This document shows, piece after piece, positions 1 through 9,945 of a stretch of 64,000 nucleotides of DNA. The position numbers and the translations under genes are program-made. The DNA lies in NCBI GenBank assembly GCA_000802095.1, contig JUEB01000023.1, positions 1 through 64,000 on the forward strand, written 5' to 3'. This DNA comes from Peptococcaceae bacterium BICA1-7. GTDB lineage: Bacteria > Bacillota > Desulfotomaculia > Desulfotomaculales > Desulfocucumaceae. Within the stretch, counting starts at the first letter, position 1; each line of letters begins with the position of its first letter. Below the pieces are notes generated by a model. The model saw only the letters and a program-made list of their open reading frames with translations. It ran no database searches and was not told where the DNA came from.

Positions 1-699
1 CAGGGCGGTGACGGCCTTCACCAGGGCGGCGTCGGTTACCTCGGGCCTCAGGGGAACCTCCCTGACCTTGCCGCCCTTGCCGGTTACCGTCAGGCTTCCG
101 GTGAGGAGGTCGAGGTTCCTCAGGCGTATGCCGCAAAGCTCGCTGACCCGGACGCCGGTGTACAGCAGCGCCATGACGATGGCCCTGTCCCTGGGGCTGA
201 CCCCGCCGCCCCGGACGAAGTGGAGCAGCCTCTCGATCTGCCCCTCGGTGTACACCTCCACCTGCCTTTCGCTCCCCGAGGCCACCCTGACCCTGTCCCT
301 GCGGGGGTCCACCACGGTCTCCTCCATGAGGCCAGTGGCTACGAGGTGCCTGTTGAAGCTGGCCAGGCTGTTGACCTTCTTGTTGACTGTGGCGGCCTCG
401 TAGCCCCTCTCCAGCAGGTGGTTCCTGAAGCCGGTGATGTGGGACCTTTTGATCTGTCCGGTGAATCCCTCGCCCACGTCACTGAGGTGGGCCAGAAATC
501 CGGCAACGTCTCCGGCGTAGCTTTCGATGGTCTTTGGGCTTTTGCCGTCCTCGGCCAGGTGGCGGCGGAAGGCGTCGACGTATTCCTCCGGTGTTAACGG
601 ATTCTCCGCTGTAGTCCCTGTGGGCAATCTTTTGGGAGGGGGGATTACGAGGGTATGGACAGTCCCGCTCCGGTGCCCCTGCGGGCAAATTTTTTGCAC
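1..699 (-). CDS. tyrosine recombinase, copy A (partial, runs off window)
   Basis: The reading frame is open from a GTG at 699 to the window edge, about 233 codons. GTG is preferred over the in-frame ATG at 723 because an AAAGGAGG ribosome binding site lies between the two. The protein has a SAM-like N-terminal core-binding domain (KTIESYAGDVAGFLAHL region) and the start of the catalytic domain with the GVRVSEL arginine motif and the GKGGK beta-hairpin lysine, as in XerC/XerD-type recombinases. The HxxR and tyrosine motifs would lie beyond the edge. It matches copy B (2660-3358) almost base for base, apart from a diverged patch at about 557-680. It follows an immunity-like gene, as copy B does. 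Whether it continues as a normal recombinase or as the IS110 chimera cannot be seen. Confidence 0.8.
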   Translation of the reverse strand, partial: MQKICPQGHRSGTVHTLVIPPPKRLPTGTTAENPLTPEEYVDAFRRHLAEDGKSPKTIESYAGDVAGFLAHLSDVGEGFTGQIKRSHITGFRNHLLERGYEAATVNKKVNSLASFNRHLVATGLMEETVVDPRRDRVRVASGSERQVEVYTEGQIERLLHFVRGGGVSPRDRAIVMALLYTGVRVSELCGIRLRNLDLLTGSLTVTGKGGKVREVPLRPEVTDAALVKAVTAL

Positions 700-723
700 T
701 GTGGTTTCCTCCTTTCCGGGCAT

Positions 724-756
724 GGAAAAAGGCCAACGGTTTGGTTTCCGTTGGCC
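724..756 (-). terminator. terminator-like hairpin in recombinase A leader
   Basis: Positions 731-739 and 748-756 form a perfect 9-bp stem (GGCCAACGG / CCGTTGGCC) with an 8-nt loop. On the minus strand it is followed by TTTTT, and the ribosome binding site and GTG of the recombinase come just after. The position suggests an intrinsic terminator ending the upstream immunity transcript, or an attenuator of the recombinase. The same structure is present at copy B. Confidence 0.6.
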
Positions 757-912: not shown

Positions 913-1512
913 TTATCTTTTCTTGCTAAAGCTTTTGGCATATTCTAATTTTTTTATCTGTGTTGTGTTTAAATGCTGTTTAATAGGCTCGTAAAGCTCT
1001 ATGACTTTACTGAAATCCTTTCTTTTCCAAGCATCATTTGCTCTATTCTCCGTTATCTTTAACATTTCTTCTGTATAAGCAGTCTGTTGTCTCTGCAATT
1101 TCATTTCTGAAATTTTTTTGTAATACTGGTATTGTCCCGCGAGCGCTTCTTTTCCGTGTATCCTTAATAGTTTGGCTAGCTCCCCAACAGCCTTAGATAT
1201 ACTTCTTGGGTTACTTGCTTGATAAAAGGGCAAAACCTTCTCACTACTTGCAGAATTCTCTATGATGTCTTTGATCCCAATTCTCAGTTTGTTTTGGTAA
1301 TCCTCCGGTATTAGCCCAATTTCCACATAAACCTCATAAGAGATTTTCTCATGATAGATATTTAAATAAACTTTATCGGTTTGGAATTTTACACAATATG
1401 GGTCTGAAAAGACGCAACGATATCCGTAGTCACTTATGAGATATTCAAAGTGCCTCTTTACTTCTTCTTGAAAGCCAAGTAAATTCCTTTCTGTAACATC
1501 AATAGTACCCAT
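913..1512 (-). CDS. probable immunity protein (second RHS cassette)
   Basis: This is a 199-residue soluble protein that I cannot place in a named family. It has an N-terminal alpha/beta part (a segment around FEYLISDYGYRCVF and VYLNIYHEKISYEV that resembles small immunity-type folds) and a lysine-rich helical C-terminus with TPR-like character. It starts 11 bases after the orphan RHS toxin tip ends at 1524, which is the usual place for the immunity gene of a polymorphic toxin. It is AT-richer than the recombinase and IS110 sequences around it, as transferred toxin-immunity cassettes often are. The immunity role is inferred from position only. Confidence 0.55.
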   Translation of the reverse strand: MGTIDVTERNLLGFQEEVKRHFEYLISDYGYRCVFSDPYCVKFQTDKVYLNIYHEKISYEVYVEIGLIPEDYQNKLRIGIKDIIENSASSEKVLPFYQASNPRSISKAVGELAKLLRIHGKEALAGQYQYYKKISEMKLQRQQTAYTEEMLKITENRANDAWKRKDFSKVIELYEPIKQHLNTTQIKKLEYAKSFSKKR

Positions 1513-1523
1513 TATCTCTCTCC

Positions 1524-1882
1524 TTATCTACCAGGTGGATACCAATAACCATCTGAGTATTTCCAGCCATGATTTTTTAGTAGATTTCGTTCTGCCCCCA
1601 AAAAACCAACATTATCCATGGGATATGGTGAAACATCTTTAATTGGGTTTCCTCTTTTGATAATCTCACGCAGCACACCTGAATTCTGCTTCCAATTGGC
1701 CTTTGGGCTTCCTAGATCTGGTAATAAGTCTGCAACTCTAAATTCCCCTGAACTTATGGCTCCCGGTTTATTTAGGTCACTCATTTTTCCTATTACCGCT
1801 GTCTCAGCTTTACTCGCCCCCTTAGGTGAGAAACTGTCGTCACCTTTTGGGGTGGCAACCGTTTCCAGTTGCCACCACCATT
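1524..1882 (-). pseudogene. orphan C-terminal toxin tip of an RHS/WapA-type protein
   Basis: The last roughly 110 codons read as a domain common at the C-terminus of RHS proteins, with recognisable blocks ANWKQNSGVLREII, GNPIKDVS and FLGAERNLLKNHGW. No ribosome binding site or sensible start is visible: the frame simply emerges from the end of the IS110 transposase gene just upstream, with a W-W-W stretch across the junction. I read it as a displaced toxin tip that has lost its RHS carrier. Its presumed immunity gene (913-1512) follows directly. The biochemical activity of this tip family is not something I can name. Confidence 0.6.
1851..1876. repeat. 9-bp inverted repeat at the IS110 right end
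   Basis: GGTGGCAAC (1851-1859) and GTTGCCACC (1868-1876) form a perfect 9-bp stem with an 8-nt loop, starting about ten bases beyond the stop codon of the transposase half. It has no T-run, so it is more likely an element-end structure than a terminator. It also marks the approximate junction between the mobile sequence and the orphan toxin tip. Confidence 0.5.
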
Positions 1883-1885
1883 TTA

Positions 1886-3358
1886 TCACACCGCCTTCTG
1901 TTCTGGTAGGGTGGGCATGACGTACGCCGTCTTGTGCTTCATCATCCCGTAGATGATGTTGACCAGCCTTCTCATGACGCACACCAGGGCCTGGACCTTG
2001 GTCTTGCCCTCCCTGATTTTCCGCTGGTAGTAGTCGAGAAACACCGGGTTGCGGGGTATCCCCGACCCCTTGGACACCTGCACCTGCTGGATGGCCAGGA
2101 AGTAGAAGATGCCGTGGAGCTCCCTGTTGCCCTGCTTGCTTTTCTGATCCTTCCCCTTGCCTGCGGAGCTGAACTTTATGGGAGCGATGCCCGCGAACCT
2201 GGCCAGCTTGTCGGCACTGGAGAATCTCGATATGTCGCCAATCTGGGAGACCAGGGCGCAGGCCGTGACGGTGTCAATCCCCGGCATTGTGTCGAGCCTG
2301 TACCCCAGCAGGTCCACGGTCCTCTTCAGCTCTTTTTCCACCTCTCCGATTTCCTTTTTCTTGAACCTGACGTCCCTGACGATGCTCCTGACGATGAAGT
2401 CCCTGGCCTCCTGGTACTCCCTTTTCGTCTCTCCGTCCTTTTCAACGAGGGCCAGTATCTTTTTGGCCTTGTTGGTGGAGCAGGCGTTGTGGCTGTGGCT
2501 TCTGAGTAGCACCGCCAGATCCTCAACCAATGTGTCGGACAGCAGGTGGGGGGAGGGGTACTCCTCCCAGAAGGCCAGGGCGGTGTTGCCGTCCACGTCG
2601 GAGAAGAACTTGCGGTAGCTGGGGTAGTGGTGGGCCAGTTGGTTGTGCAGTTGGTTAACCAGGGCGGTGACGGCCTTCACCAGGGCGGCGTCGGTTACCT
2701 CGGGCCTCAGGGGAACCTCCCTGACCTTGCCGCCCTTGCCGGTTACCGTCAGGCTTCCGGTGAGGAGGTCGAGGTTCCTCAGGCGTATGCCGCAAAGCTC
2801 GCTGACCCGGACGCCGGTGTACAGCAGCGCCATGACGATGGCCCTGTCCCTGGGGCTGACCCCGCCGCCCCGGACGAAGTGGAGCAGCCTCTCGATCTGC
2901 CCCTCGGTGTACACCTCCACCTGCCTTTCGCTCCCCGAGGCCACCCTGACCCTGTCCCTGCGGGGGTCCACCACGGTCTCCTCCATGAGGCCAGTGGCTA
3001 CGAGGTGCCTGTTGAAGCTGGCCAGGCTGTTGACCTTCTTGTTGACTGTGGCGGCCTCGTAGCCCCTCTCCAGCAGGTGGTTCCTGAAGCCGGTGATGTG
3101 GGACCTTTTGATCTGTCCGGTGAATCCCTCGCCCACGTCACTGAGGTGGGCCAGAAATCCGGCAACGTCTCCGGCGTAGCTTTCGATGGTCTTTGGGCTT
3201 TTGCCGTCCTCGGCAAGGCGGCGGCGGAAGCTCTCCACGTATTCCTCCGGGGCTGCCGGAGTCTCCGCTGTTGTTCCTGTGGGCAGTCTTTTTGGAGGGG
3301 GGATTACGAGGGTATGGACAGCCCCGCTCCGGTGCCCCTGCGGGCAAATTTTTTGCAC
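1886..3358 (-). CDS. in-frame chimera: tyrosine recombinase N-half / IS110 transposase C-half
   Basis: This is one uninterrupted frame. GTG at 3358 is chosen because AAAGGAGG lies 8 bases upstream; an ATG at 3382 would put that site inside the gene. Counting from the ATG frame, residues to about 235 are a tyrosine recombinase, with a core-binding domain, the GVRVSEL arginine and the GKGGK lysine. The HxxR and tyrosine motifs are missing. From about residue 241 the sequence is the second half of an IS110 transposase: LHNQLAHHYPSYRKFF, the MPGIDTVTACALVSQIG helix-hairpin-helix, and the GIAPIKFSSAGKGKD to KQGNRELH block that holds the catalytic serine of this family. The RuvC-like DEDD domain of IS110 is absent. 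Neither half keeps a complete active site, so it is probably a deletion fusion. A new function is possible but not shown. Confidence 0.8.
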   Translation of the reverse strand: MQKICPQGHRSGAVHTLVIPPPKRLPTGTTAETPAAPEEYVESFRRRLAEDGKSPKTIESYAGDVAGFLAHLSDVGEGFTGQIKRSHITGFRNHLLERGYEAATVNKKVNSLASFNRHLVATGLMEETVVDPRRDRVRVASGSERQVEVYTEGQIERLLHFVRGGGVSPRDRAIVMALLYTGVRVSELCGIRLRNLDLLTGSLTVTGKGGKVREVPLRPEVTDAALVKAVTALVNQLHNQLAHHYPSYRKFFSDVDGNTALAFWEEYPSPHLLSDTLVEDLAVLLRSHSHNACSTNKAKKILALVEKDGETKREYQEARDFIVRSIVRDVRFKKKEIGEVEKELKRTVDLLGYRLDTMPGIDTVTACALVSQIGDISRFSSADKLARFAGIAPIKFSSAGKGKDQKSKQGNRELHGIFYFLAIQQVQVSKGSGIPRNPVFLDYYQRKIREGKTKVQALVCVMRRLVNIIYGMMKHKTAYVMPTLPEQKAV

Positions 3359-3419
3359 TGTGGTTTCCTCCTTTCCGGGCATGGAAAAAGGCCAACGGTT
3401 TGGTTTCCGTTGGCCCTGG
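2660..3419. repeat. direct repeat, recombinase copy B versus copy A
   Basis: This stretch repeats 1-760 at a constant offset of 2659 bases. The first 556 bases are essentially identical, about 120 bases around 3216-3340 are diverged, and the leader with its hairpin is again nearly identical. Upstream of the hairpin similarity fades, with short shared blocks near 3440 and 3510. The patchy pattern suggests gene conversion between two copies. Confidence 0.8.
3383..3415 (-). terminator. terminator-like hairpin in recombinase B leader
   Basis: The same 9-bp stem as at copy A: GGCCAACGG (3390-3398) and CCGTTGGCC (3407-3415), followed on the minus strand by TTTTT and then the ribosome binding site. 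It would stop read-through from the RHS/immunity operon into the chimera unless relieved. Confidence 0.6.
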
Positions 3420-3555: not shown

Positions 3556-3939
3556 CTAATCTGCAACATTGACCTCTATCATCTTACATGCTACTCTAAT
3601 GAATACCCCATCAATTAATTTTAGATTAACCTGACGCCATTCATCATCAATATTTTTTCGTCCTCCTCCAGGCAGAGGCTGTTTTCCGTACAATGTTTTT
3701 ACAGTTTGAAGAGATTCATTTATTAAATCTCCTTTTTCATCTATCTTAATACTTTCAATAGTAGCCTCATCCCAATGACCAATAATATTTAGACCAATAT
3801 AATCTTTACAGCATATATAAAGAGAATTTTTATCCTCACTGTCGATAATCTTAATGCAAACCTTACCAAAATCCATTTCAATTTTTTCTAGTTGCCAATC
3901 TGCCCAACTACTATTGTTAATTTTCTCAACAAATCTCAT
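3556..3939 (-). CDS. probable immunity protein for the RHS toxin
   Basis: This 127-residue soluble protein has a clear ribosome binding site (AAGGAGGG, 6 bases before ATG). It begins 18 bases after the RHS gene stops, so the two are co-transcribed. It is rich in beta-strand-like segments (IEMDFGKVCIKIID, LNIIGHWDEATIESIKI), as seen in many small immunity proteins, but I do not recognise a named family. It has no signal peptide, which fits a cytoplasmic protein that neutralises the cognate toxin in the producer and its siblings. The role is inferred from position. Confidence 0.6.
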   Translation of the reverse strand: MRFVEKINNSSWADWQLEKIEMDFGKVCIKIIDSEDKNSLYICCKDYIGLNIIGHWDEATIESIKIDEKGDLINESLQTVKTLYGKQPLPGGGRKNIDDEWRQVNLKLIDGVFIRVACKMIEVNVAD

Positions 3940-3957: not shown

Positions 3958-6900
3958 TTATGGCAACCACAATTCGTCATCGAAGAATGACTGAGGTATA
4001 GTTGTTTTGTCACTACCCCATGGTCCTGAGGTAACATTTTTTCTTCTTTCAATATGAATGTGGTCAACCGAATGATCAGGATTTTTGGGTCCAATATAAT
4101 TAGGATCTTCAGGATGAGCTTTTTCCATTCTTACCCTTAGAGGACCTTTACTGTCATTTCCATAGTATTTTCCACCTTGCTGCGTCATTTTCTTTAAATT
4201 CTCTTGCAATGCGCCCTTTGTTGCTGGCAAGACCTCTCCATGTGGAGTTACAATGAAATCAGCTTTACCCGCCCCCTCTTTACCCACAATAAATTCAAGA
4301 GCATCTAAAGTTACTTTTTTACCTAATATTCGCTGGCCCAAATAACCACTGACTCCTGCTGGCGGTCCTGCAGATATGTATATTTGAGCATCTAATTCAT
4401 TTGGCGATACAAAGTTTATTACTGGCCCAATTACTGGTGCATTTTTCGCTTCTTCCACGAAGTTCTTTGTTGCACCCGGCGCTTCATTAATAAAAATTAC
4501 AACACCGTACTTAGCTTCATTCACCGCTTGATTCCAGTCGATATTGTTCAAACCTCTACGAGCACTGTCGACACCTTCATTAAGACCATCCCAGAAATTG
4601 ATTGCTACCAATACTCCGGGAGGTCTCTCAGACTTAGGACAATCCTCTACCCAACGTAGCCCCAGCGGATCCACATACCTCAACGGGTTATTCAGCACAT
4701 ACGGATACGGGTTCAGCGTTCCCGGCTGAGTCAGGTTTCCGGCCCAGGGGTCCTGGGAGATGAACCTGCCTACCTCAGGCTGGTAGTACCTGGCCTGGGC
4801 GTAGTACAGCTCGGCGAAGTGGTCGTAGGTGTAGCCGGTGTAAGCTATGGCGTTGTCGGGGCCGGACCAGTTGGGGTCCAGCTTTACCGCTCCCAGAGGA
4901 CGGCCGAATTCGTCGTAGTTGTAGTGGGCCGAGGTCTTGCCGCTGCTGCCGATGACCTTGTTTACTGTACCCAGGTCGTCGTGCTGGTAGTACAGGGTGT
5001 CCCACTGATCCACGTAGGCCGTTTCGGTCCCGGAGGGTATCCAGCCGTTGTCGTGGTCATCCAGGGCTATGAAGTCCGTGCTAATCAGTTCCAGGCCGTA
5101 GGTGTAGCGCTGGATCTGGCTGTGCTCTCCGTAGCTCATGAGCAGGTTGTCGTAAGCTTTTGTGTAGTCCACCACGTTGTGCTGGGCCATATAGTGCCGG
5201 TTGAACTGCTGGCCCCAGCCGGGCTTCGGGTTGCCTGCGTGTGACGGCGGCCCGGGATTTTTGTTCTTCAATTCCTGCACGAACTCCGGCGGGCCGCCGG
5301 GTCCCGGCGGGAACTCCGGACGGTTGTTGTTTTCGGCCCCGTGGTTGAGGTCGGTAATTACCTGTATCCTCCTGCCCAGGCCGTCATAGGTGTAGGATGT
5401 TTTGTCCCCGAATTTGTTTATGGCCTCAATCAGCCGGTTGGCGGCATCAAAGGAATAGGTGTTGAATACCCTGTCACCGCTTCTTATTTCGGTAAGGTTG
5501 CCCCTGTTGTCGTAGCTGAGGTCTTTTACGTCCCCGTCGTGGTCCTTTATTCCGGTGAGCCTGTTCAGCGAGTCATACCTGTAATACTTTGCCCCGGTTT
5601 TATCCTGCTCACGCTCAACCATGGCCACCCGGTTGCCCAGGGTGTCGTAGTAATAGCTCCTGCCGCCGCCGTTAGCCTCGCTGACACTGACAAGCTGATT
5701 CAGGGCGTCGTAGGCAAATGTTTTTTCCTCGTTTTCCTCCAGTTCGTACTCATCGGTCTTACATTTCTGTACAGCGGTTTTATTTCCTGCCGGATCGTAT
5801 TCATACCGGAAAGAATCGGTTGTATTTCCCCCGGGGTCCCTTTGGGTGAGGGAGATAATGCGGTAAATATCATCATAGTCACGCACCGTTTTGGACCCGT
5901 TGGGCAGCTGCGTTTCCACCAGTCTGCCGGCGGGGTTGTAGAGGTAAGACGTTGTCCTGTTAAAAGCATCTGTAACACCGGTCAAACGGTCCAGCTGGTC
6001 AAATTGATAGGTTACCCTACTGTCGTCCGGGTAGGTTATGCTCTCTTTCTGCCCAGTGGCGGTCCAGGTGAACTGCTGCACCCGCCCGGCAAAGTCGGTG
6101 ACCTTCTTTATTCTTCCCAGGGGGTCCAGCTCAAAGCTGTTTGTGCCCAGCCAGTCGGTCATGCCGGTGACATAGCCCTGGGCGTTGTAATCCAGGCTGA
6201 CCTGCCTGCCATCGCCATATTGTATGCCGGTCAGCTGGTTGTTTAAATCATAATTAAGGGCTGTTGAGTAGCCGTCCCTGTCTTTTATCTCTACCAGGTT
6301 GCCGGCGGGGTCATAGCCGTATCCGGTAACGTGTCCTGCTGCGTCCTCCACCGCCACCAGCAGGTTGCGCCTGTCGTAGCGGTAGTAGGTGGGCTGGAGG
6401 ATAGTGCCCCCGTCCAGAAAATCTCCCGGGCCGTAAACGCCTTCACTCACGCTCTCGCCGGCATTTTCCGCTTCCTCCGGCACGTCTCTCTCTTCCGTAT
6501 CACCGCTGTCCTGCCCGCTTTCAGGTCCATAAACGTCATCCGTGACGGTTTCCCCTTCTTCCTCCCCGGGCAGGCCGTAAACTGCTCCGGTGACACTGGC
6601 CGTGTCGACCTCAATGGCTGCAAGGACTTCCGGGGTGATGGAACGGTACCGGCTCACGGCGGAAAGATTGCCTACCGCATCGTATTGGTATTCAGTATTG
6701 TTGCCCAAGGCGTCTATTACTTCCGTCAGCCGCTTCAGAGGGTCGTAGTGGTAAGAGGTGGTATTGCCGTTGAAGTCGGTTACGGATGCCACCTGTCCCC
6801 GGGGAGTGTACTCAAAGCTGCGGCTTTGGCCCAGGGCGTCGGTTATTCTATCTATTTGGCCCAGAGGGCTATAGTTATACGAGGTTCTGCTGCCCAGGGG

Positions 6901-9900
6901 ATCAACTGCTTCGGTCACCCTGCGGTTGCTATCGTAGCTCCAGCCATAGCGGTTCCCCTCGGGGTCCTCCCGGCCGGTAAGGTTGCCCACCGGGTCATAC
7001 TCCATCTGCCAGACCGCCCCGTTGGCCCGGGTGTGTGCCACAACCCTGTCCATCAGGTCGTAGGAATACTCCTCGGTGTTACCCAGTTCGTCGGTGACGC
7101 TAACCACCCTGCCGGCGTCATCGTAGCTGAATTTTTTACCAAAGCCCAGCGGGTCGGCTATCTCGGTAATCCTGCCCAGGATGTCGTAAGTATAGGCGGT
7201 TGTGTTCCCCAAAGGCTCTTTAACCGAAACCAGCCGGTTTAGCTCATCATAGCCGTATTCTGTAACCGCGCCCCGGGGGTTTGTCTCCCTTAGCAGGTTG
7301 TTGTTGGGGTCGTACTCATAACTTGTATCATTGCCCTCGGGGTCGGTGACGGTGGTGAGACGGTTCAGCTCATCGTAGCCGTAAACCGTCCGGCTGCCGT
7401 TGGCGTCGACAAAGGCGGTAACATTACCGCATTTATCATACTCATAGCGGGATACATTATTATTCGGGTCCACTACTTTTACTATCTGGTCCGCCCCGTT
7501 GTAATGATAGGTGGTGACATACCCCTCCTCGTCGGTGACCGTTTCTATCTTGCCATTGTCATCGTAGGTGTAGGTTTTACTATTATTCTCCGCATCGGTC
7601 ACCCGGGTGGCCATATTGTTGCCATCGTACCCCACTGCTGTGACGCTGCCCTCCGGATCGGTTACCCGCCTTACCCGGTTGGCGGCGTCGTAGTCGAAGT
7701 TGGTGGCGCTGTTCAGGGCATCCACCATTTCCCTGAGGTTGCCGGCCGTATCATATTCAAAGGAGGTTACGGCGCCGTCGGGCACGGTGATGGATTTAAC
7801 CATTCCCCTTTCGTCGTAGGAAATTTCCGTAGCCCTGCCCAGGGGGTCGGTGGTTTTCAGCAGGTTGCCGGCCTGGTCATATTCGTAAAGGTGCTGTTTG
7901 CCGTCCGGAAGTGTCATGGAAACAGGCTTATTCAAATCATTATAGGCAAATGCGGTGGCCCTGCCCGCCGGGTCGGTAGCCAGAGTGACATTTCCGCGCC
8001 CGTCGTACTGATAATTGTAGGTGTACCCCTTCTTATCCGTGCGGGACGTCACGTTATCATCGTCGTCATAGGTAAAGCTCTCTTCCTGTCCCAGGGCGTC
8101 AATACTCTTTACCATCCGGAATTTATCGTCGTAATGGTAAACAGTGGCCCTCCCCAACTGGTCGGTCAGGGTGGTTGTTTTGCCTCTGTCGTCGTAGTCA
8201 AACAGGGTCACTCCGCCCCGGGGGTCCGTTTGCTCAACCACTCTGCCCTTTTCGTCATATTTATTTATATAGCTGCCGTCTCCCCTGGGACTGCGGATAC
8301 GGGTCAGGTGGAATTTATCGTCATATTCGTAGGTTATTGTTTCCCCCTCGGGCCCGATGAAGGATGTCAGGTTTAAACTGCTGTCATAGCCATACTGAAC
8401 AGAACGGCCGCTCTGATCGGAAATACCGGTAATGTTACCCGCCTGGTTATAGTCAAGCGTCAGGCTTCCGCTTGCTGTTTTTATTTCTACCAGCTTCAGC
8501 CTGTCGTAAGTAAGCCCGGTACTGTTGCCGTTGGGGTCGGTGATTTCAACCAGAAAACCAGCCCGGTTGAAGGTGTAAACGGTATTATCAGGCATGGTCA
8601 GGGTGTATGTATCATTGGCGTGGCTCTCCAGCCTGTTATAAACGCCTGCGGGCGCCTGATAGTTGGTGGTGCCCCCTTCACGGGTATAATTCTCCCGGTG
8701 GCCATCGGCAAAGATTGCTTCAATTTCACCGCTGCGGTGTATAAGCAGCCGGTGCTCGAAATTGTGGTGCCAGTTCATTCCCAGCCGGCCCAGGTAACTG
8801 TCCCTGCTGTTATAGAAGCGGGCGAATTTTATGGGAAAGACTCCGGCCACTTCCAGGTCGGTGTGTTTGTGGATGTAGTTGCCGGTGGCAAGGTTTACCG
8901 GGTCTGCGCCAGCACCGTTGCAGCTGATATGTTCTGATCCCAGGAAAAACGCCTCTATCAGCGAGATCAGCCACTGGGGTATTTCCCTTAACACATTGGT
9001 TTGTGGATCGTGAATCAGCAGCCGCCAGTATTCCGTCAGAGCATATTCGTCGGTTTTGCTGTTGACCCCGGGCTGAATGCCGTTATCCCCGGCTATGTCA
9101 TGCAGCCTGTCGTAATCACCGCAAAACTGCTCGGCAATTGTCCCCAGGGTATCCCCTGGTTGGACGATATATTTTAGGAAGTCCAGCCTGCCTGATATTC
9201 TCTTTTCAACTAAAACCTTTATTTTTTTAGGCTTGCCATCCGAGCCTGTAACTGTTTTTTCTACCCAGATAAACCTGACAGCGGTTATTTCATAATAGGT
9301 TAATTCCGGTATCTGCACATCCAGGGTCCAAGTGGTGCCGCTTATGCTTGCCCGGCTTGTTTCTCCATTTACGGTAACCTCAACCCTGTCTACGTCCTCA
9401 TCAGAGTCCAGGGGCCCGTACACCACAAAGGTATCCCGGGTTTCATCACCGTTTGGCCCCTCAGCCTCCAGGTTGGGGGCTATGTTGATATCGCTGGTGG
9501 GGTGGCTGCTGACTATTACAGTGATGCTGGAGGGATATACTGACCAGTCCGGCTCGCCGGGGGTGGAAGGGGGCAGGGGCCTGGCTTCTATTTTATAGAG
9601 GCCGTCCTCCACCATGTTCCCGCCGTCGTCCTTTCCGTCCCACGTCTCGCTGTTTTCCACAAAGCCGCCGGGATATGTTTTGGCTGCTACCAGGGTCCTG
9701 ATTAGCTCATTCTTCTGGTTAAATATTTTTACCCAGGCGGTCTGCTGGTGTTCAAAATTCCACATTATCTCGATGGTTCCGCCTTCAGTGGGGTTGTAAA
9801 CAGACGGGTCTAATTTTATATATTTTACCGGGGGGCTGCCGCCCGCCTGATCCTGCGCCCAGACACTTGCGGCAATAAAGGTAGCAGTGACAAGCACTAC

Positions 9901-9945
9901 CAGTACAGACGCCAGTATAGTTAATTTGGATTTGATTTTTACCAT
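3958..9945 (-). CDS. secreted LysM/RHS-repeat polymorphic toxin
   Basis: The 1995-residue protein starts at ATG after GAGAGGGGGAG. Domains in order: signal peptide (about 1-30, ending AASVWAQ); a FlgD-like Ig region; a second Ig-like region; a LysM peptidoglycan-binding domain (about 257-302, IVQPGDTLGTIAEQF); a DUF6531-type entry (about 340-420, NLATGNYIHKHTDLEV); tens of YD repeats to about 1690; the RHS core motif (YYQPEVGRFISQDPW, then YVLNNPLRYVDPLGLRW, ending near 1763); and a variable C-terminal domain of about 230 residues. RHS proteins form a shell that releases the C-terminal toxin. This tip ends in a His/Asp-rich block (HPEDPNYIGPKNPDHSVDHIH) that looks like a metal-dependent nuclease centre, but I cannot name its family. 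The Sec signal plus LysM points to a Gram-positive WapA-like, wall-associated toxin. A 23-base gap links it to the upstream SLH gene. Confidence 0.88.
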   Translation of the reverse strand: MVKIKSKLTILASVLVVLVTATFIAASVWAQDQAGGSPPVKYIKLDPSVYNPTEGGTIEIMWNFEHQQTAWVKIFNQKNELIRTLVAAKTYPGGFVENSETWDGKDDGGNMVEDGLYKIEARPLPPSTPGEPDWSVYPSSITVIVSSHPTSDINIAPNLEAEGPNGDETRDTFVVYGPLDSDEDVDRVEVTVNGETSRASISGTTWTLDVQIPELTYYEITAVRFIWVEKTVTGSDGKPKKIKVLVEKRISGRLDFLKYIVQPGDTLGTIAEQFCGDYDRLHDIAGDNGIQPGVNSKTDEYALTEYWRLLIHDPQTNVLREIPQWLISLIEAFFLGSEHISCNGAGADPVNLATGNYIHKHTDLEVAGVFPIKFARFYNSRDSYLGRLGMNWHHNFEHRLLIHRSGEIEAIFADGHRENYTREGGTTNYQAPAGVYNRLESHANDTYTLTMPDNTVYTFNRAGFLVEITDPNGNSTGLTYDRLKLVEIKTASGSLTLDYNQAGNITGISDQSGRSVQYGYDSSLNLTSFIGPEGETITYEYDDKFHLTRIRSPRGDGSYINKYDEKGRVVEQTDPRGGVTLFDYDDRGKTTTLTDQLGRATVYHYDDKFRMVKSIDALGQEESFTYDDDDNVTSRTDKKGYTYNYQYDGRGNVTLATDPAGRATAFAYNDLNKPVSMTLPDGKQHLYEYDQAGNLLKTTDPLGRATEISYDERGMVKSITVPDGAVTSFEYDTAGNLREMVDALNSATNFDYDAANRVRRVTDPEGSVTAVGYDGNNMATRVTDAENNSKTYTYDDNGKIETVTDEEGYVTTYHYNGADQIVKVVDPNNNVSRYEYDKCGNVTAFVDANGSRTVYGYDELNRLTTVTDPEGNDTSYEYDPNNNLLRETNPRGAVTEYGYDELNRLVSVKEPLGNTTAYTYDILGRITEIADPLGFGKKFSYDDAGRVVSVTDELGNTEEYSYDLMDRVVAHTRANGAVWQMEYDPVGNLTGREDPEGNRYGWSYDSNRRVTEAVDPLGSRTSYNYSPLGQIDRITDALGQSRSFEYTPRGQVASVTDFNGNTTSYHYDPLKRLTEVIDALGNNTEYQYDAVGNLSAVSRYRSITPEVLAAIEVDTASVTGAVYGLPGEEEGETVTDDVYGPESGQDSGDTEERDVPEEAENAGESVSEGVYGPGDFLDGGTILQPTYYRYDRRNLLVAVEDAAGHVTGYGYDPAGNLVEIKDRDGYSTALNYDLNNQLTGIQYGDGRQVSLDYNAQGYVTGMTDWLGTNSFELDPLGRIKKVTDFAGRVQQFTWTATGQKESITYPDDSRVTYQFDQLDRLTGVTDAFNRTTSYLYNPAGRLVETQLPNGSKTVRDYDDIYRIISLTQRDPGGNTTDSFRYEYDPAGNKTAVQKCKTDEYELEENEEKTFAYDALNQLVSVSEANGGGRSYYYDTLGNRVAMVEREQDKTGAKYYRYDSLNRLTGIKDHDGDVKDLSYDNRGNLTEIRSGDRVFNTYSFDAANRLIEAINKFGDKTSYTYDGLGRRIQVITDLNHGAENNNRPEFPPGPGGPPEFVQELKNKNPGPPSHAGNPKPGWGQQFNRHYMAQHNVVDYTKAYDNLLMSYGEHSQIQRYTYGLELISTDFIALDDHDNGWIPSGTETAYVDQWDTLYYQHDDLGTVNKVIGSSGKTSAHYNYDEFGRPLGAVKLDPNWSGPDNAIAYTGYTYDHFAELYYAQARYYQPEVGRFISQDPWAGNLTQPGTLNPYPYVLNNPLRYVDPLGLRWVEDCPKSERPPGVLVAINFWDGLNEGVDSARRGLNNIDWNQAVNEAKYGVVIFINEAPGATKNFVEEAKNAPVIGPVINFVSPNELDAQIYISAGPPAGVSGYLGQRILGKKVTLDALEFIVGKEGAGKADFIVTPHGEVLPATKGALQENLKKMTQQGGKYYGNDSKGPLRVRMEKAHPEDPNYIGPKNPDHSVDHIHIERRKNVTSGPWGSDKTTIPQSFFDDELWLP
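6410..6620 (-). other. acidic VYG-repeat insertion in the RHS shell
   Basis: Residues about 1110-1180 of the RHS protein break the YD-repeat pattern. They form a strongly acidic, Pro/Gly-rich linker with three VYG repeats (AVYGLPGEEEG, DVYGPESGQDS, GVYGPGDFLDG). YD repeats resume directly after it (YYRYDRRNLL). It may be a flexible loop or cleavage site in the shell; this is inference. Confidence 0.6.

What the first reader, a model, noticed from the sequence alone, without database searches (positions are those of the whole stretch)
1886..3358. In-frame fusion of a tyrosine recombinase to half an IS110 transposase
One frame of about 490 codons joins the N-terminal two thirds of a XerC/D-like recombinase to the C-terminal half of an IS110 (DEDD/serine) transposase. 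The junction is near residue 235-241. The recombinase lacks its tyrosine, the transposase lacks its RuvC-like domain, and the frame is nevertheless intact. IS110 enzymes use bridge RNAs, so a fused DNA-binding domain would be of interest if expressed.
Basis: seen in the sequence. Interest (0 to 1): 0.75.

Follow-up and report, generated by a model that had tools for sequence, protein, structure and literature searches.

The report
Deletion-born recombinase–IS110 fusion among toxin cassettes
The fused gene is real and occurs twice in this genome, but it is most likely a catalytically dead leftover of a mobile element whose relatives carry a guide RNA matching the joint where bacterial toxin genes change their toxic tips, and that wider system is the more interesting find.

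Summary
One open frame on the minus strand (window 3358–1886, 490 codons from a GTG with a Shine–Dalgarno) joins residues ~1–230 of a XerC/D-like recombinase to the coiled-coil and Tnp half of an IS110 transposase. The same fusion occurs a second time in the genome, 4 mismatches in 1,403 bp. I found it nowhere else. It keeps the IS110 serine but has no DEDD residues, no recombinase tyrosine and no bridge RNA, so it should be catalytically dead.

The surroundings explain it. Both copies sit in an Rhs array, between an immunity gene and a displaced toxin tip, ending exactly at the core/tip boundary motif AAGGGGGCGGGTAAAGCTG. Intact relatives of this IS110 in Bacillota sit at the same kind of boundary, mostly behind a same-strand companion recombinase. 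They carry a conserved bridge-RNA-like element whose loop is complementary to the boundary, and guide and boundary co-vary across seven classes (2 of 5,040 permutations as good). Best reading: an internal deletion in a recombinase–bridge RNA–IS110 element fused its two genes, and recombination copied the result. An RNA-guided IS110 group that targets polymorphic-toxin core/tip junctions was not mentioned in any paper I found. It is inferred from sequence, not shown.

The parts
1886..3358 (-). Fusion gene, copy B (490 aa from GTG; longest ATG frame starts at 3382)
2693..3358 (-). Tyrosine recombinase part: SAM-like core-binding domain plus the first half of the catalytic domain
   Evidence: Pfam; alignment to five intact 308-371 aa relatives
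1889..2692 (-). IS110 coiled-coil plus Tnp part, catalytic-serine loop kept, RuvC domain absent
2684..2695 (-). Fusion junction (residues ~230-233, VTDA|ALVKA)
3367..3373 (-). Shine-Dalgarno AAGGAGG, 8 nt before GTG 3358
   Evidence: read
3390..3415 (-). Hairpin GGCCAACGG...CCGTTGGCC followed on the minus strand by TTTTT; conserved at copies A, B and C1
1824..1885 (-). Remaining right end of the IS110 (stop, TGATAAAATGG, hairpin 1851-1876)
   Evidence: compared with the right ends of L106 and L109
1805..1823 (-). Core/tip boundary motif AAGGGGGCGAGTAAAGCTG at the start of orphan tip 2
4260..4278 (-). Same motif (GAGGGGGCGGGTAAAGCTG) inside the Rhs gene, at the start of its current tip
1524..1823 (-). 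Displaced (orphan) toxin tip 2, no Pfam match; reads on from the motif
913..1512 (-). Presumed immunity gene of tip 2 (by position only)
1..723 (-). Fusion copy A, recombinase half; its IS110 half lies at contig C31 5397-6718, which overlaps window 1-548
3556..3939 (-). Presumed immunity gene of the current Rhs tip (by position only)
3958..9945 (-). Rhs polymorphic toxin, core plus current tip
   Evidence: RHS_repeat and Rhs_assc_core

Best explanation
An ancestral element with the order [recombinase gene]-[bridge RNA/left end]-[IS110 transposase]-[right end] sat at the core/tip boundary of this Rhs toxin locus, as its intact relatives do in other Bacillota. One deletion removed the last third of the recombinase gene, the bridge-RNA region and the IS110 RuvC domain. 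It happened to join the two neighbouring same-strand genes in frame. The fused block was then copied within the array by homologous recombination, so it now separates successive toxin-immunity cassettes. The protein cannot cut DNA by either parent's chemistry. At most it is an expressed non-catalytic DNA- or RNA-binding protein, and the repeat itself offers homology for further cassette exchange. Shown here: the anatomy, two copies, the right end lying exactly at the boundary motif, absence of the bridge RNA, and relatives with the intact order and a guide matching their boundary. Inferred: the deletion, its timing, the presence of a bridge RNA in the parent, and lack of function.
For: Both fusion copies end at the core/tip motif, which also marks the tip in the Rhs genes of this contig and of C1. 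Displaced tips follow each copy; the one behind copy A is a TNT domain. 29 of 35 fetched relatives of the IS110 half have a same-strand companion recombinase, usually ending ~130-165 bp upstream, so one deletion suffices for a fusion. 36 of 43 3' ends in L061-L094 reach the motif GGGTACGG/GGGGACGG 45-80 nt downstream, read in frame as GTGN/GTGK before unrelated tips. One tip cassette is fused to its toxin core in one genome and lies behind the IS110 right end in another (L064 vs L070). The closest IS110 relative (L060, 69%) has guide TCGCCCCC, an 8-nt match to the boundary beside copy B. The order Rhs - TNT tip - immunity - truncated tyrosine recombinase recurs in another genus (L124). No intact parent and no bridge RNA remain in the genome. 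A second aberrant join occurs on C1: recombinase N-terminus next to a partial RecA.
Against: No intact tyrosine-recombinase-IS110 pair was found in any genome, so the parent element is inferred from the serine-recombinase version and from L124. The IS110 half is not decayed: it keeps 101 of 105 residues invariant in 12 intact relatives. All three coding differences between the copies after codon 56 are synonymous (P about 0.04). The cut falls at the IS110 RuvC/coiled-coil border. These fit a recent event, but weak selection on the protein is not excluded.
Confidence: 0.72

Rival explanations
1. Domesticated protein: the fusion is expressed and selected as a non-catalytic DNA/RNA-binding factor, for example repressing or bridging recombination in the toxin array.
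For: Intact 490-codon frame with Shine-Dalgarno; two copies with an identical junction and only synonymous changes after codon 56; cut at a domain border (PMC11208158); 101/105 invariant residues kept.
Against: Not found in any other genome, including two congeners; recombinase catalytic domain cut mid-fold; no bridge RNA in the genome; no promoter-like match (weak); other recombinase fragments here are plain debris.
Confidence: 0.12
2. Assembly chimera: reads from an intact recombinase and an intact IS110 were joined.
For: Contig ends fall in this repeat: C31 ends 8 bp before copies A and B diverge, and this contig starts 3 bp after the nearest difference.
Against: The junction is in two copies distinguishable by base differences on both sides; this contig's first bases already include ~23 bp of IS110 sequence in copy A; no other contig carries the missing parts of this IS110 or of this recombinase.
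Confidence: 0.06
3. Target capture: a 5'-truncated IS110 landed inside the recombinase gene and the frame is chance.
For: Recombinase remnants stand at Rhs loci without IS110 (C1, L124), so the recombinase may have been there first.
Against: IS110 elements move as whole circles with both ends, so a half element arriving by transposition is not expected; a later deletion is needed anyway.
Confidence: 0.1

Closest known systems
IS110 family recombinases with bridge RNA/seekRNA (IS621, ISCro4; PMC11208160, PMC11208158, PMC11187229)
   Same: The fusion's C-terminal half is the coiled-coil and Tnp part with the serine loop. Intact relatives have all parts, including an upstream structured RNA with an internal-loop guide.
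   Different: The fusion has no RuvC domain, left end or bridge RNA. In relatives the guide matches polymorphic-toxin core/tip boundaries; PMC11208160 and PMC11187229 contain neither 'toxin' nor 'Rhs' (word searches). The 5' side of the loop is antisense to the top strand, whereas in IS621 the left guide pairs with the bottom strand, so which loop this is remains open.
XerC/XerD-type tyrosine recombinases
   Same: SAM-like domain and the first half of the catalytic domain, with the first Arg and the beta-hairpin Lys.
   Different: His/Arg box and Tyr missing; intact relatives are 308-371 aa and several lie by S-layer or flagellin genes.
Displaced Rhs/CDI toxin tips with linked IS elements (from general knowledge)
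   Same: Orphan tip plus immunity arrays separated by mobile-element genes.
   Different: Here the element ends exactly at the tip boundary and its relatives' guide RNA co-varies with that boundary.
TIGR-Tas RNA-guided proteins (PMC12045711)
   Same: Weak similarity to the IS110 coiled-coil/Tnp part (NCBIfam 26 bits against a cut-off of 100; Foldseek).
   Different: Below the family cut-off; TIGR array not looked for.

Membership tests
IS110 transposase | N-terminal RuvC-like DEDD domain | tested here: not met
   No PF01548 match in P0001; the match starts at profile 131 of NF033542
IS110 transposase | C-terminal Tnp domain with conserved serine | tested here: met
   PF02371 E 1.5e-19; serine loop aligned to IS621; 101/105 invariant residues kept
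IS110 transposase | Bridge RNA in the element | tested here: not met
   Model R1 gives no match in the genome up to E 10 but finds L060, which was not in its training set
IS110 transposase | Specific ends at a defined target | tested here: inconclusive
   Right end at the boundary motif retained; left end deleted
Tyrosine recombinase | Catalytic R-K-H-R-H-Y set | tested here: not met
   Only the first Arg and Lys region present
Tyrosine recombinase | SAM-like core-binding domain | tested here: met
   PF02899 residues 50-129
Polymorphic toxin (Rhs) array with orphan tips | Rhs core with variable tip, displaced tips behind | tested here: met
   Rhs_assc_core, TNT tip, shared boundary motif
Intact relatives as bridge-RNA-guided elements at toxin boundaries | RNA structure and guide-target covariation | tested here: met
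   14 pairs, 10 with compensatory change; 2 of 5040 permutations reach the observed match
Intact relatives as bridge-RNA-guided elements at toxin boundaries | RNA-directed insertion observed | not testable with these tools
   needs an experiment

The most novel reading that the evidence does not exclude
A widespread group of bridge-RNA-guided IS110 elements in Bacillota, usually paired with a short companion recombinase, has guides tuned to the core/tip junction of polymorphic toxins. It inserts there and so displaces and swaps toxin-immunity cassettes, much as an integron inserts gene cassettes. The window's fusion is a member in which the companion and the transposase have become one protein.
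Probability: 0.45. Interest if true: 0.9.

Novelty: new variant of a known kind. Interest (0 to 1): 0.62.

Why it matters
How polymorphic toxins change their tips is usually put down to homologous recombination. An RNA-guided element whose guide co-varies with the core/tip joint would be a directed mechanism, testable with existing bridge-RNA reporter assays. The fusion also shows how such an element can lose its RNA and catalysis yet stay behind as a repeat between cassettes.

Tried and rejected
Assembly chimera: considered and judged unlikely from base differences between the copies and the absence of other halves. C31's own IS110 N-terminal half as the missing half: only 24% identical to the right subgroup, so a different IS110. 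Fusion elsewhere: about 500 genomes in four searches, the 85k-species scan (limited to six peptides; all 35 relatives were IS110 only), viral contigs, plasmids and phages, none. A first DNA-pattern scan of the genome collection with a guessed sequence found nothing and was uninformative. Literal copies of the target in the SER-IS110 gap: none for the patterns tried; the match found later is to the shorter reverse complement. First permutation test with a regex that missed several elements gave P about 0.008; the seven-class version is, with hand-chosen guide windows and one representative per class. AlphaFold model: recombinase half uninformative (pLDDT below 50, no alignment for it), Tnp half confident. 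Left end of the intact elements: not resolved. Rfam: no known family at gathering threshold.

Full report
THE OBJECT. The frame lies on the minus strand, 3382–1886, with the best start at GTG 3358 behind AAGGAGG. Residues 50–237 are a XerC/D-like recombinase cut in the middle of its catalytic domain; residues ~233–498 are the IS110 coiled-coil and Tnp part. IS621 has RuvC 1–122, coiled coil 123–188, Tnp 189–326 (PMC11208158); the NCBIfam IS110 match begins at profile position 131, so the cut lies near the RuvC/coiled-coil border. Against five intact recombinase relatives the sequence departs after '...VPLRPEVTDA', and IS110 homology starts at 'ALVKA'. The first catalytic Arg and the hairpin Lys remain; His, Arg, His and Tyr are gone; the IS110 serine loop 'KFSSAGKG' remains and D, E, D, D are gone. 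Mutation of any of the DEDD residues or of the serine abolishes IS621 recombination (PMC11208158), so loss of catalysis is a safe inference.

COPIES. A DNA search of the genome gives copy B (this window), an identical-looking stretch ending contig C31, the recombinase half at window 1–741, and recombinase-only remnants on C1 and C31. Window 1805–3207 and C31 5316–6718 differ at 4 of 1,403 bases, and C31's last 548 bases equal window 1–548. The simplest reading is that C31 and this contig are neighbours and copy A spans the break; this adjacency is inferred. Between A and B, codons 21–56 carry most of the differences, while codons 57–241 are identical, a mosaic that points to recent recombination or gene conversion. 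The three coding differences downstream are synonymous; the chance expectation for that is about 0.04, too little to claim selection. No other copy of this IS110 half, no N-terminal half of its subgroup and no intact recombinase of this type exist in the genome. On C1 the recombinase N-terminus runs into a partial RecA gene, so broken joins at these remnants are not unusual here.

CONTEXT. The neighbouring gene is an Rhs toxin. The 19-base motif AAGGGGGCGGGTAAAGCTG (KGAGKA) stands, with at most one change, at four places: at the tip of the Rhs gene here, at the tip of the Rhs gene on C1, and directly after the right end of both fusions, where an orphan tip begins. The tip behind copy A is a TNT domain; the others have no Pfam match. 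The array reads: Rhs core, tip 1, immunity 1, fusion B, tip 2, immunity 2, fusion A, TNT tip 3. Immunity genes are named by position only.

RELATIVES. A scan of 84,980 species found 35 loci, all matching the IS110 half only. 29 of the 35 carry a serine recombinase or its remnant upstream on the same strand; where intact it is about 258 aa, usually ends ~130–165 bp before the IS110, and has dN/dS mostly 0.05–0.12 among eight equal-length copies. 36 of 43 IS110 3' ends in L061–L094 reach GGGTACGG or GGGGACGG (one mismatch allowed) after 45–80 nt, and reading continues as GTGN/GTGK into unrelated toxin tips (this count excludes one spurious match at 167 nt). Further relatives use other boundary alleles: GGGCGCG (L110, L111, L117), GGGGGCG (L107), GGGAACGA (L112), GGGACGA (L106), GATACGT inside the Rhs core (L108, L109). 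More distant IS110s (41–47% identity) and one at ~30% lacked the pattern. A tip joined to its core in L064 follows the IS110 right end in L070, with homology starting at the motif; L062 and L061 show another cassette in two positions.

GUIDE RNA. Upstream of these IS110s lies a conserved element with an outer stem, an internal loop and an inner stem; 10 of 14 pairs show compensatory change. The 5' side of the loop is complementary to the boundary: CGTACC/GGTACG, CGTCCC/GGGACG, CGCGCCCT/AGGGCGCG, CGCCCCCT/AGGGGGCG, TCGTTCCCT/AGGGAACGA, ACGTATC/GATACGT. With one representative per class, the summed match is reached by 2 of 5,040 permutations. Exceptions exist: L072 and L082 carry a guide one base off their present flank, and several degraded copies do not match. 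The closest relative of the fusion's IS110 half, L060, has guide TCGCCCCC; this fits the boundary beside copy B by 8 nt and the other three copies by 7 nt, although L060's own nearest orphan tip is 0.8 kb away and reads GGGAGCG. Three related RNAs in genomes of the window's order lie beside Rhs genes with broken IS110s. No such RNA was found in the window's genome.

HOW IT WORKS. For the fusion: most likely it does nothing enzymatic. It is the remnant of an element at the tip boundary, formed by a deletion between two adjacent same-strand genes, and its repeats may now serve homologous recombination between cassettes. For intact relatives: most likely the RNA directs the IS110 recombinase to the core/tip joint. 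Whether the moving unit is the IS alone or tip–immunity–recombinase–IS, and whether the loop found is the target or the donor loop, is not settled here.

LIMITS. The relatives were found through six peptides, so frequencies are not unbiased. The genome is in 33 contigs and its reads were not seen. 'No paper' means none in the open library searched with a few word searches.

Noticed in passing
L061-L093, e.g. L062:2628-3404: Short (about 258 aa) Ccr-like serine recombinase lacking the usual large C-terminus, mostly 130-165 bp upstream of the IS110, with a TATAAT-like -10 and a CGTTAC...GTAACG palindrome upstream; dN/dS mostly 0.05-0.12.
   Followed up: partly
L007:4673-5730 (contig C1): Recombinase N-terminus and upstream region next to an Rhs gene run into a RecA C-terminal fragment.
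   Followed up: partly
L006:1104-2579 (contig C31): Radical-SAM/SPASM-like maturase ORF near the toxin cassettes (by eye, not searched).
   Followed up: no
L006:3767-4616 (contig C31): Split REP-type transposase-like ORF between cassettes (by eye; no Pfam match for the part searched).
   Followed up: no
L114:6578-6959 and L137:8573-8674: Bridge-RNA-like matches beside flagellin genes; L114 holds a more distant IS110 (41%). Possibly the same trick at flagellin genes.
   Followed up: no
L121, L123, L125, L126, L127: Tyrosine recombinase relatives near flagellin or S-layer genes (the L123 one is broken), several followed by a ~150 aa partner beginning like MRIIKTLADISLL.
   Followed up: no
L136:~6800-6900: Boundary motif CTAAGGGTGCGGGTAAAG just left of a broken IS110 left end, a possible handle on the left junction.
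   Followed up: partly
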